Source of the DNA: Curtobacterium pusillum
Lineage (GTDB): Bacteria; Actinomycetota; Actinomycetes; Actinomycetales; Microbacteriaceae
Assembly: GCA_002025645.1 (NCBI GenBank)
Contig: CP018783.1
Span: 1,364,001 to 1,428,000 of the forward strand
Length of the DNA stretch: 64,000 nucleotides
Direction: 5' to 3'
The position numbers and the translations under genes were made by a program. Of this stretch, positions 50,219-63,798 are shown one piece after another (position 1 is the stretch's first letter; every line of letters starts with the position of its first letter). The notes below the pieces were generated by a model. That model had not been told where the DNA came from. It saw only the letters and a list, made by a program, of their open reading frames with translations, and did not search any database.

Positions 50219-50248
50219 TCCTTCCCAGAACGCCCGCGATGGGAAGCG

Positions 50249-50304
50249 GAATCGGGCGTACCCGGTCGAAACTTCTGTCCAGGTACGCCCGATTCGACCA
50301 GGTA
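50249..50304. repeat. A-B-A'-B' structured repeat, copy 1
   Basis: A 50253-50262 (CGGGCGTACC) pairs with A' 50282-50291; the arms extend to 50249-50262 with 50282-50295. B 50259-50270 pairs with B' 50293-50304 over 12 bp with one mismatch. A and B overlap and A' precedes B', so the two pairings cross or compete. It lies in the convergent gap 50219-50321, shared with 62694-62960. Confidence 0.75.
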
Positions 50305-50321
50305 CGCCGGCCGGGGCGCCG

Positions 50322-61672: not shown

Positions 61673-62587
61673 ATGACCGCCACCGAGAGCATCACCACCG
61701 GCCGCCGGAAGCTCCGCACCGGCGTCTCGGCCGCCGCACCCGCGAACGCCGCGAAGATCGGCGTCAGCGGCAAGGGCTTCACGATCGCGTCCGGCATCGT
61801 CCTGACGGTGTTCGCGATCATCTGGCTCATCCCCAGCCTGTTCGCCCTGAAGACGTCGCTGTCCGACAACGGCGTCGCCGCCCTCGGCGCGAACGCGATC
61901 CTGTCGAACTGGAACCCGACGCTGCACAGCTACGCGTCACTGTTCCAGTCCGGCGACATCTGGAACTGGTACCTCGCCAGCGGCATCACGAGTGTCGTGA
62001 CCGCGGTGCTGACCGTGTTCTTCGCGTCGATGGCGGCGTTCGCGCTGTCGCGGCTCGTGTTCCGCGGTCGGAACATCGCGTTCCTGCTCATCATCCTCGG
62101 GATCATGATCCCGACGCAGGTGCTGATCATCCCGATCTTCCAGGAACTCAACGCCGTCGGGCTGCTCAACACCTACTGGTCGGTGATCTTCCCGCAGGTG
62201 CCCGCCGTGATCGCGGTGTTCATCTTCAAGCAGTTCTTCGACGGGATCCCGAAGGAACTCGAGGAGGCCGCCCGCATCGACGGTGCCAGCATCTGGAAGG
62301 TCTACTGGTCGGTCATCCTGCCGCTGTCCCGTCCGGTCATCGCGGCCGTCACGATCCTGACGTTCGTCGGGGTGTGGAACAACCTGCTGCTGCCGCTGTT
62401 CGTGCTGTCCAACCCGGACCTCATGACGATCCCGGTGGGACTCGCCACGGTCCAGGGCAGCTTCGGTCAGCGCTACGCGGACATCCAGGCCGGGGCGATC
62501 CTGGCGGCGTTGCCGCTGATCATCCTCTACCTGATCTTCCAGCGGCAGATCGTGGAGGGTGTGACCGGGTCCGGCCTCAAGGGCTGA
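61673..62587 (+). CDS. Sugar ABC transporter permease, MalG type (GH51 locus)
   Basis: 304 residues, six helices, EAA loop LEEAARIDGASIWKVYWSVILP, GVWNNLLLPLFVLSNPDL. ATG 61673. Completes the importer; ATPase again missing locally, as for the two other CUT1 systems here. Followed by a 20-bp perfect hairpin. Confidence 0.94.
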   Translation: MTATESITTGRRKLRTGVSAAAPANAAKIGVSGKGFTIASGIVLTVFAIIWLIPSLFALKTSLSDNGVAALGANAILSNWNPTLHSYASLFQSGDIWNWYLASGITSVVTAVLTVFFASMAAFALSRLVFRGRNIAFLLIILGIMIPTQVLIIPIFQELNAVGLLNTYWSVIFPQVPAVIAVFIFKQFFDGIPKELEEAARIDGASIWKVYWSVILPLSRPVIAAVTILTFVGVWNNLLLPLFVLSNPDLMTIPVGLATVQGSFGQRYADIQAGAILAALPLIILYLIFQRQIVEGVTGSGLKG

Positions 62588-62600
62588 CGCGACCCCACAT

Positions 62601-62644
62601 CGGACTGGAGGCGCGGTGCCAGCTGGCACCGCGCCTCCAGTCCG
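62601..62644 (+). terminator. Perfect 20-bp hairpin, CTGGAGGCGCGG family
   Basis: Arms 62601-62620 and 62625-62644, loop AGCT (itself palindromic, so the whole 44-bp stretch is one palindrome). 13 bp after the MalG-type stop. Best example of this repeat family. Confidence 0.85.
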
Positions 62645-62693
62645 TCTGTGGTCTGGTCCGCCCCCGCCTGCCGGAAGTGCGCGCTCCTGGTGG

Positions 62694-62960
62694 AATCGGG
62701 CGTACCCGGTCGGAAGTTTCGTGGCGGTACGCCCGTTCCAACCGGGTATCGCACGCGCTATGGGAAAGAACGGGCATACCCGGCGGCGTCGGCGGTACCG
62801 GGCGGAACGGCGGTACCGGGCGGAACGGCGGTGCCCAGCGGAACCGGGCGTACCTGCCGGAATCGGGCATACCTGCCGGGATCGGGCGTACCTGGCGCGA
62901 AGTTTCGTGGCGGTACGCCCGGAAACGCCAGGTATCGCCCGCGCTTTGGGAAAGAACGGG
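62694..62960. repeat. Composite structured repeat, copies 2 and 3 with tandem units between
   Basis: Two 81-bp direct copies, 62694-62774 and 62880-62960. Copy 2: A 62697-62706 with A' 62726-62735, B 62703-62710 with B' 62741-62748. Copy 3: A 62883-62892 with A' 62912-62921, B 62889-62897 with B' 62926-62934. A arms are identical in both; B arms differ but stay complementary (TACCCGGT/ACCGGGTA versus TACCTGGCG/CGCCAGGTA). Between them lie three 18-bp units (62791-62844) and three 19-bp units (62840-62896). Occupies the convergent gap 62588-62970, no gene. Confidence 0.85.
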
Positions 62961-62970
62961 CTGCGAACGG

Positions 62971-63798
62971 TCAGGCGGAGACGGACTCGCGTGCCTCGTG
63001 CTTCCAGAACCCGGAGAACGTGATGCGGGACTTCGGCAGGCCGGCACGGTGCAGGTGCCGACGCCCCTCGGTCGCGAGCGTCGACTCCCCCACGACGAAC
63101 GCGTACCCGCGGTCGTCGGCCGGCACGTACCGCTGCAGTTCGGCGAGCGCCGCCCGACCGGGCACGGTGTGCTCGGTCTCGGCGCGGACGATCCACGTCA
63201 CGGTGACCCCGTCCGGGACGTCGAGGTCGCGGACGTCCCCGGCGGTGGGGACCTCCTGGATGATGCGGCCGACGGTGTCCCGCGGCAGTGCGGCCGCGAT
63301 GCCGACGACGCCGGGCAGGCCCGTCTCCTCGGCGGCGATGACGACCTCGCTCGTGCCCTCGGGGACGTCGAAGATGCAGCCCTGGTCGAGCATCGCCAGC
63401 TCGTCACCCGGGCGGGCGGCGCAGGCCCAGATCGCGGCGCGGCCCTCGGGTTCGCCGTCGGCTCCGGTGTGCACGACGAAGTCGATGTCCATCTCGCGCG
63501 ACTCGGCGCGGAACTCGGCGACGGTGTAGTTCGCGCAGTGCGGTCGGACGTCCTCGGGGATCGCGAGGAACGTCGGCCACCACTTCTTGCCGTCGAGGTC
63601 CGGCATCCGGAAGGCGTCCTGGTCGGGGCGCTGGACGAACAGCCGGAACCAGTGGTCGAAGCCGAGGTAGCCGAACTCGGCGAGGTCGTCCCCGGTCACC
63701 GTGACGCGCTGCATCGACGGCGTCGTGCGCTCGCTCCGGAGGACACGAGCACGGAAGAGCCGGGGGTTCTCGGGCAGGAGCCGCGGGGTCTTCGCCAT
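62971..63798 (-). CDS. Siderophore-interacting protein (FAD-dependent ferric-siderophore reductase)
   Basis: 275 residues, ViuB/SIP family. FAD domain with MQRVTVTGDDLAEF and the diagnostic NYTVAEFRAESREMDIDFVVH (about 90-110); C-terminal NAD(P)-binding-like part with VVIAAEETGLPGVVGIAAALP. Releases iron from imported siderophores by reduction in the cytoplasm. ATG 63798. A DtxR/IdeR-type box overlaps the start, fitting repression by iron. Confidence 0.93.
   Translation of the reverse strand: MAKTPRLLPENPRLFRARVLRSERTTPSMQRVTVTGDDLAEFGYLGFDHWFRLFVQRPDQDAFRMPDLDGKKWWPTFLAIPEDVRPHCANYTVAEFRAESREMDIDFVVHTGADGEPEGRAAIWACAARPGDELAMLDQGCIFDVPEGTSEVVIAAEETGLPGVVGIAAALPRDTVGRIIQEVPTAGDVRDLDVPDGVTVTWIVRAETEHTVPGRAALAELQRYVPADDRGYAFVVGESTLATEGRRHLHRAGLPKSRITFSGFWKHEARESVSA

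What the first reader, a model, noticed from the sequence alone, without database searches (positions are those of the whole stretch)
62694..62960. Duplicated A-B-A'-B' element with compensatory changes: candidate new structured RNA or REP-like family
Two 81-bp direct copies (62694-62774, 62880-62960) each contain segments that can pair as A with A' (CGGGCGTACC/GGTACGCCCG, unchanged in both) and B with B'. B/B' is TACCCGGT/ACCGGGTA in one copy and TACCTGGCG/CGCCAGGTA in the other, so both sides changed together. The order A-B-A'-B', with A and B sharing TACC, means the two helices either form a pseudoknot or are mutually exclusive, as in a switch. A third copy at 50249-50304 keeps the layout. 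Pair-preserving change argues for selection on structure.
Basis: partly seen in the sequence, partly recalled or inferred. Interest (0 to 1): 0.75.

Follow-up and report, generated by a model that had tools for sequence, protein, structure and literature searches.

The report
Two-type palindromic repeats ending Curtobacterium genes
The two repeats belong to a family of short palindromic DNA elements that sit at the ends of genes in many species of the plant-associated genus Curtobacterium, occur in two sequence types found at the same chromosomal sites in different species, and likely act as hairpins that mark gene ends; the RNA switch first proposed for them is not supported.

Summary
The repeat is real; the switch or pseudoknot reading is not supported. 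The two 81-bp copies (67/81 identical) are members of a Curtobacterium element: direct 19-bp units, one unit inverted to give a 37-bp palindromic core, then a conserved ~40-bp 'cap'. The host genome has 23 core hits of this type (unit CGGGCGTACCnGG) and 20 of a second type with the same anatomy (CGCGCGTAGGnGG); 38 of 66 genus genomes have at least 10 of one type. Within 158 copies none of the eight B/B' pairs exceeds chance. B' looks like a remnant of the outer inverted unit and can pair, nested, with the unit just upstream. The both-arm changes lie in the core helix and separate the two types. Elements avoid promoter regions (4 of 80 independent sites divergent, against 34% of control gaps). 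At 22 of 24 orthologous sites that carry both types the element keeps its orientation, so the unit probably changed in place. No RAYT/Y1 transposase was found in 66 genus genomes. Best reading: a REP/BIME-like 3'-end hairpin family without its usual transposase. Function, transcription and the trans-acting factor are untested.

The parts
62678..62697 (+). degenerate upstream 19-bp unit (U1) of copy 1; pairs with B' in the predicted fold
   Evidence: sequence; RNA fold
62698..62734 (+). copy 1, 37-bp palindromic core GGGCGTACC...GGTACGCCC
   Evidence: pattern hit G000:C1:1426698-1426734
62735..62775 (+). copy 1, cap: B' (62741-62748), read as a remnant of the outer inverted unit, then ATCGC...TGGGAAAGAACGGGC
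   Evidence: register shared by 134 aligned copies
62776..62844 (+). stretch of degenerate units between the two copies
   Evidence: sequence
62845..62882 (+). two intact direct 19-bp units CGGGC(G/A)TACCTGCCGG(A/G)AT upstream of copy 2
   Evidence: sequence; the predicted fold pairs the nearer one with B'
62884..62920 (+). copy 2, 37-bp palindromic core
   Evidence: pattern hit G000:C1:1426884-1426920
62921..62961 (+). copy 2, cap, with B' CGCCAGGTA at 62926-62934
50219..50309 (-). third family member, minus strand: cap 50219-50253, core 50254-50290, direct unit 50291-50309
62601..62644 (.). neighbouring terminator-like perfect hairpin CGGACTGGAGGCGCGGTGC..; its counterpart is seen in this intergenic region in relatives with and without the element
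61673..62587 (+). ABC transporter permease gene whose 3' end faces the element
   Evidence: Pfam BPD_transp_1
62971..63798 (-). siderophore-interacting protein gene, convergent, 3' end faces the element
   Evidence: Pfam FAD_binding_9 and SIP

Best explanation
The repeat is one member of a Curtobacterium family of REP/BIME-like palindromic elements, built from 19-bp units and located at gene 3' ends, that likely works by folding into one long nested hairpin which would shield or bound transcripts arriving from either side. Shown: anatomy, copy number, two unit types, 3'-end location, presence at orthologous sites in one orientation, no Y1/RAYT transposase found. Predicted: the hairpin fold. 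Inferred: that it is transcribed; that it acts on 3' ends; that its unit sequence is held by a trans-acting sequence-specific factor, because CGGGCGTACCnGG is also kept in the upstream unit that takes no part in the core helix. Also inferred: that type I and type II units replaced each other in place at fixed sites, by mutation plus template-switch or conversion copying between arms, rather than by fresh insertion.
For: Multi-copy in the genus: type I core hits in 36 of 119 relatives, all 36 in the window's genus (66 genomes), reversed control 0; type II in 29 of 66, reversed control 0 to 2 per genome, so counts of 1 or 2 may be chance; at least 10 of one type in 38 of 66; 23 + 20 hits in the host. 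Fixed anatomy: 134 copies align without gaps, cap at a constant offset; type II has the same register. 3' ends: of 80 independent sites 38 convergent, 38 tandem (23:15 in orientation), 4 divergent; control gaps of 80-800 bp without element 175 divergent of 519. No clear RNA-strand signal: 23:15 at independent sites; G.T vs A.C mismatches 75:58 in 71 clusters (132:91 uncollapsed). Shared sites: 49 orthologous-site clusters hold 218 of 260 elements; orientation identical in 44 of 49. Both types at one site: 24 clusters, 22 same orientation, 19 with both flanks aligned; with hybrid cores left out 22 mixed clusters, 20 same; at convergent sites 10 of 11. Core helix in 48 representatives: 77.6% of cells paired vs 71.8% shuffled, covariation 0.226 vs 0.141 (both 0/500); pairs 22/56 GC 25/CG 21 and 28/50 CG 25/GC 18. 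In 149 orthologous pairs, 6 of 7 two-sided changes in the nine outer arm pairs go from pair to pair. Folds: z -3.5 to -8.1 for 5 copies. A second genus (G141) has 16 copies of a two-unit palindrome with a different unit; of 11 examined 6 are convergent, 3 tandem, 1 divergent, 1 at an edge.
Against: Within type I the inner stem does not covary: position 9/27 pairs in 0.507 vs 0.495 expected, and 10-14 are close to expectation (134 copies). In 149 orthologous pairs 9/27 shows 69 one-sided and 20 two-sided changes, 1 of them pair to pair; the outer arm pairs also show 44 one-sided changes. In type II only some arm pairs covary. In one search the two measures that count pairs or pair types do not exceed shuffles (16 vs 14.7, 128/500; 42 vs 40.7, 175/500), and the type difference may be few events seen many times. 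Cross-type orthologous pairs are barely more alike outside the arms than random cross-type pairs (cap 0.641 vs 0.614, about 10% of shuffles reach it), so in-place change rests on position and orientation, not on shared sequence. A separate terminator-like half-site lies near 96 of 158 type I and 78 of 102 type II copies, so the element is probably not the terminator itself. The SIP-permease site is empty in several species, so it is dispensable there. No transcript data were available.
Confidence: 0.55

Rival explanations
1. The 19-bp units are binding sites of a sequence-specific DNA-binding protein; arrays of inverted and direct sites at gene ends form a roadblock or insulator, and the palindrome is only the dyad of a dimer site. 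Type I and type II would be two specificities of that protein.
For: The motif is conserved in the upstream unit, which was not selected on (letters of CGGGCGTACC 80-100% each, n 60-69%, GG 80-100%). The arms keep GGGCGTACCnGG while n varies independently. Unit number varies: 0 in 10, 1 in 89, 2 in 28, 3 in 14, 4 to 10 in 17 of 158. No clear RNA-strand signal. Genomes mostly have many of one type: 23 with at least 10 type I, 18 with at least 10 type II, 3 with both, of 66.
Against: No protein identified. Some elements with symmetric core changes do not carry them in the upstream unit (L335, L339, L342), which fits hairpin-based copying better than a shared binding motif. Core helix covaries across types.
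Confidence: 0.25
2. Decaying, selfish MITE-like repeats spread in the past by an unidentified transposase or recombinase; the 3' location is only where insertion was tolerated.
For: Patchy distribution (0 to 67 hits per genome), empty sites, tandem duplications (L109, L113, L203). Enrichment between convergent genes is read that way for pneumococcal repeats (PMC3049150, passages).
Against: Most elements in the set lie at sites shared between species in one orientation (44 of 49 clusters). No Y1 transposase in 66 genomes; other transposases were not searched. No match for one type I element in 72,556 plasmid or 50,697 phage records. I noticed no target-site duplication but did not test for it systematically.
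Confidence: 0.2
3. A structured RNA in which A/A' and B/B' form a pseudoknot or a two-state switch.
For: B/B' differ on both sides between the two window copies. Across both unit types the crossing register exceeds shuffles in cells paired and covariation score (0/500 each).
Against: No B/B' pair exceeds expectation in 158 type I copies, and 8 of 8 pairs are formed in 3 of 158, at least 7 in 15 of 158. The nested register does about as well and has more both-side changes. No Rfam family reaches its gathering score at 62500-63100. No clear strand bias.
Confidence: 0.04

Closest known systems
GTAG-tagged REPs / BIMEs with RAYT (PMC2817692; PMC3733652)
   Same: Short palindromes in many intergenic copies, mostly between convergent or unidirectional genes and close to 3' ends; several sequence classes; arranged in arrays.
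   Different: No unpaired GTAG tag (type I has GTAC; the GTAG of type II is inside the stem), no RAYT found in 66 genomes, 19-bp unit architecture with a cap, copies at sites shared between species, and an actinobacterial genus; the word 'Actinobacteria' has 0 occurrences in the main text of either paper.
CGTC-tagged REPs (PMC3733652)
   Same: REP-like palindromes without a dedicated transposase.
   Different: No CGTC tag in the consensus; longer composite architecture.
BOX elements of Streptococcus (PMC3049150)
   Same: Modular element with a variable number of a middle module, predicted hairpin, enriched between convergent genes, slow turnover.
   Different: The repeated module here is itself the palindrome arm and exists in two interchangeable types; sequences were not compared.
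Two-unit palindrome of genome G141 (another genus, same family)
   Same: 19-bp units, two direct and two inverted, mostly at gene 3' ends; linker letters differ on both sides between copies.
   Different: Different unit (CGTGTGAGGACG...), no cap; exact core found in 1 of 299 family genomes. Homology to the Curtobacterium element is not shown.

Membership tests
RAYT-dependent GTAG REP/BIME | short palindrome repeated in intergenic DNA, rare between divergent genes | tested here: met
   4 of 80 independent sites divergent vs 175 of 519 control gaps
RAYT-dependent GTAG REP/BIME | RAYT/Y1 transposase in the genome | tested here: not met
   PF01797 in 0 of 66 genus genomes; control rings in 5 of 14 genomes, E. 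coli among them
RAYT-dependent GTAG REP/BIME | unpaired GTAG (or GTGG) tag at one end of the palindrome | tested here: not met
   type I core GGGCGTACC..GGTACGCCC has none; in type II GTAG pairs with CTAC inside the stem
RAYT-dependent GTAG REP/BIME | usually more than 100 copies per genome (start of abstract of PMC2817692) | tested here: not met
   23 + 20 core hits in the host; at most 67 of one type in a genome
CGTC REP | unpaired CGTC tag at one end | tested here: not met
   the consensus next to the core has none; single copies not checked one by one
MITE | terminal inverted repeats matching a resident IS, target-site duplication | tested here: inconclusive
   empty sites seen at one locus, no clean duplication noticed; no IS search beyond PF01797
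Intrinsic terminator | hairpin followed by a U-run | tested here: not met
   in the window and in the consensus the core is followed by the cap ...TGGGAAAGAACGGGC, no U-run; separate terminator-like half-site often nearby
Pseudoknot/switch RNA | covariation of the crossing helix B/B' | tested here: not met
   no excess within 158 type I copies; across types above shuffles on two measures, but the nested register does about as well and has more both-side changes
Known Rfam family | match above gathering score | tested here: not met
   9 sub-threshold matches, all at 62585-62662, none on the palindromic cores
Functional 3'-end RNA element | transcribed and affects 3' ends | not testable with these tools
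   no RNA data

The most novel reading that the evidence does not exclude
A dispersed set of 20-70 gene-end elements is rewritten in place, genome by genome, from one 19-bp recognition unit (CGGGCGTACCnGG) to another (CGCGCGTAGGnGG) with site and orientation kept. That implies an undiscovered, specificity-switching factor that reads these units at gene ends, and a gene-end marking system in Actinobacteria that needs no RAYT.
Probability: 0.25. Interest if true: 0.75.

Novelty: new variant of a known kind. Interest (0 to 1): 0.5.

Why it matters
GTAG REPs are explained by their RAYT transposase. Here a genus keeps a REP-like family at gene ends without one, at sites shared across species, and in two unit types that swap at the same sites. 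That makes two open questions testable in one genus: what keeps such repeats once no such transposase is present, and whether apparent compensatory changes in palindromes come from selection or from template switching.

Tried and rejected

Led nowhere: the type II pattern had a spacing error (40 instead of 37 bases), so its counts are not used; searches for Curtobacterium or Microbacteriaceae palindromes or repeats and for REP plus Actinobacteria listed no paper whose title or abstract start describes this family (none of those papers was opened). The weak covariance-model hits in G212 and G249 look like chance or unrelated palindromes. In one search G030 (3 type I, 0 type II) was labelled 'both' by a threshold quirk of my script; the backbone of that SIP-gene tree is unresolved, and I use only the well-supported pair G000/G037.

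Rows dropped before counts: one search kept 134 distinct of 135 copies after removing off-register hits and three chance or duplicate hits (L110, L178, L112). The 201 rows still hold some elements read from both strands and a few chance hits; the 158 with a clear cap are the cleaner set. One search used 115 of 140 symmetric copies, collapsed to 71 clusters; one search used 102 of 131 type II hits (unclear orientation dropped), collapsed to 87; searches used 158 type I + 102 type II, one element being in both sets; some 'type II' rows are hybrids (L222, L295, L324, L327). One search drew 24 + 24 of 33 + 48 representatives. Copies were found by patterns on the core arms, so conservation of those arms is partly by selection; the upstream unit was not selected on.

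Full report
OBSERVATION. They lie in a 383-bp gap between the 3' ends of an ABC permease gene (61673-62587, +) and a siderophore-interacting protein gene (62971-63798, -). A search of the host genome with the region gave 23 matches, some of them one place read on both strands. A core pattern gave 17 forward and 13 reverse hits, about 15 distinct places, against 0 for the reversed-pattern control. The places listed for either unit type are all on contig C1, none on C2.

ANATOMY. Oriented by a conserved tail, copies line up without gaps (17 host copies; 134 distinct copies from this genome and relatives). From left to right: one or more direct 19-bp units CGGGCGTACCtGGtcGaat; a last unit followed by its inverse, giving the 37-bp core GGGCGTACCtGG(tcg..cga)CCaGGTACGCCC; a linker; and a cap with CCATCGCnnnCGTTCTGGGAAGGAACGGGC as its consensus, at a constant offset behind the core. 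The number of direct units in front of the core is 0 in 10, 1 in 89, 2 in 28, 3 in 14 and 4 to 10 in 17 of 158 copies. Whole elements are duplicated in tandem at several loci, as in the window. The end of the cap (GAACGGGC) repeats the start of a unit.

A SECOND UNIT TYPE. Cap hits occur in 45 of 66 genus genomes, control 0, some of them in genomes without a type I core; there the cap stands behind cores of another unit, CGCGCGTAGGnGG. Core hits: type I in 36 of 66 genus genomes and in none of the 53 other relatives (up to 2 mismatches, control 0); type II in 29 of 66 (up to 3 mismatches, control 0 to 2 per genome, so counts of 1 or 2 may be chance); one or the other in 52. 23 genomes have at least 10 type I, 18 at least 10 type II, 3 both, among them the host (23 and 20), so 38 have at least 10 of one type. 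A covariance model of both types scores strongly only in genomes of this genus among 150 family genomes; three genomes of other genera have weak hits (strict filters).

WHERE THEY SIT. Gene calls were my own codon-usage calls, not an annotation. Type I: 80 convergent, 52 and 18 tandem, 1 divergent, 7 at an edge of 158. Type II: 44 convergent, 20 and 22 tandem, 5 divergent, 11 at an edge of 102. Control gaps of 80-800 bp without element: 175 divergent, 224 tandem, 120 convergent of 519. Collapsed to independent sites: 38 convergent, 23 and 15 tandem, 4 divergent of 80. So elements sit at gene 3' ends and avoid promoter regions, without a clear strand preference. A terminator-like half-site lies within about 200 bp of 96 of 158 type I and 78 of 102 type II copies, against 634 of 4008 background windows of 380 bp.

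STRUCTURE TEST. In 134 type I copies the variable base n of the two core arms pairs no more often than expected (9/27: 0.507 vs 0.495), nor do positions 10-14; linker pairs, pairs near the loop and weakly 6/30 exceed shuffles. In 158 copies none of the eight B/B' pairs exceeds expectation; all eight are formed in 3 copies and at least seven in 15. In 149 orthologous pairs the outer arm pairs show 44 one-sided and 7 two-sided changes, 6 of the 7 from pair to pair; at 9/27 it is 69, 20 and 1. In type II some arm pairs covary (1/35, 2/34, 4/32, 6/30, 11/25, 12/24). Across 24 + 24 representatives the core helix has 77.6% of cells paired against 71.8% in shuffles and a covariation score of 0.226 against 0.141 (0/500 each), while the number of pairs with a both-side change and of pair types does not exceed shuffles (128/500, 175/500); three pairs that separate the types change on both sides. 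Mixed states that are symmetric in themselves also exist (L335 GGGCGTAGG..CCTACGCCC; L235 GCGCATACC..GGTATGCGC), so more than one both-arm event is likely. On the same 48 copies the crossing B/B' has 67.7% of cells paired (62.4% shuffled, 0/500), score 0.253 (0.200, 0/500) and 29 both-side cells (44/500); the nested pairing of B' with the upstream unit has 64.3% (59.3%, 0/500), 0.274 (0.204, 0/500) and 44 (0/500). I read B' as a decayed outer inverted unit. Both window copies fold as one nested hairpin, in a program that does not allow pseudoknots. Mismatches show no clear RNA-strand asymmetry (75 G.T vs 58 A.C in clusters, 132 vs 91 uncollapsed). Template switching can make and mend hairpin arms (PMC8794818, abstract and opening paragraphs; PMC7202029, search listing only), so symmetric change alone does not prove selection.

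HISTORY. Flank comparison puts 218 of 260 elements into 49 orthologous-site clusters; orientation is the same throughout in 44, mixed in 3, reversed in 2. 24 clusters hold both types; 22 of these keep orientation and 19 have both flanks aligned. With hybrid cores left out it is 20 of 22. At convergent sites, where gene direction cannot dictate orientation, it is 10 of 11. This favours one old element per site whose unit changed, over repeated insertion. Against it, cap and centre of cross-type orthologous pairs are only slightly more alike than random. The window's own site is empty, single, double or multiple in relatives, and carries a type II element in G033 and a related CGCTCGTAGG palindrome in G037, although G037 matches the host at 96% in the SIP gene. 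In a tree of 30 SIP genes G000 (23/20) and G037 (6/42) are a well-supported pair, so type balance shifts fast.

WHAT IT IS. It resembles REPs and BIMEs in location and form (PMC3733652: passages and the genome-distribution section; PMC2817692: passages), but it fails two defining tests of GTAG REPs: the tag and the RAYT (0 of 66 genomes; control rings in E. coli). It has features in common with pneumococcal BOX elements (PMC3049150, passages). I therefore describe it as REP-like, not as a REP. My mechanism is a hairpin at the 3' boundary of transcripts from both sides, with the unit sequence read by an unknown factor. The fold is predicted; transcription, the factor and the effect are inferred. 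My searches listed no report of this family (open-licence papers only, listings and abstract starts seen).

A PARALLEL. Genome G141, another genus of the family, has 16 copies of a palindrome with two 19-bp units on each side and a different unit. Linkers such as TTCT/AGAA, TTTT/AAAA and ATCT/AGAT differ between copies on both sides. Of 11 copies examined, 6 are convergent, 3 tandem, 1 divergent, 1 at an edge. Whether this is common descent or convergence is open.

Noticed in passing
G141 loci L360, L365, L370, L374, L386-L392: A genus outside Curtobacterium has 16 copies of a two-unit-per-side palindrome (unit CGTGTGAGGACG...), mostly at gene ends, with linker letters that differ on both sides between copies.
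   Followed up: partly
window 62601-62644 and many loci: A perfect terminator-like hairpin GGAC(T/G)GGAGGC(G/C)CGGTGC.. recurs near gene ends in the genus; its stem differs on both sides between species (e.g. GGCGCGG vs GGCCCGG) in the permease-SIP gap.
   Followed up: partly
G038 contigs C13, C29, C31, C104, C120: Several contigs of this draft genome start or end at or within about 120 bases of a type II core, suggesting that the palindromes break assemblies.
   Followed up: no
L197 (G006), permease-SIP gap: A shortened element CGGGCGTACC|AGGCATCGC that looks like a deletion between the ACC of a direct unit and that of B', i.e. loss of the whole core.
   Followed up: no
L072: A type I element on a 3171-bp scaffold labelled Cellulosimicrobium MAG; probably a mis-binned Curtobacterium contig.
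   Followed up: no
type II cores, e.g. L259, L282, L283: Type II arms often contain AGGAGG or CCTCCT, the Shine-Dalgarno sequence and its complement (names recalled); the type I consensus lacks them.
   Followed up: no
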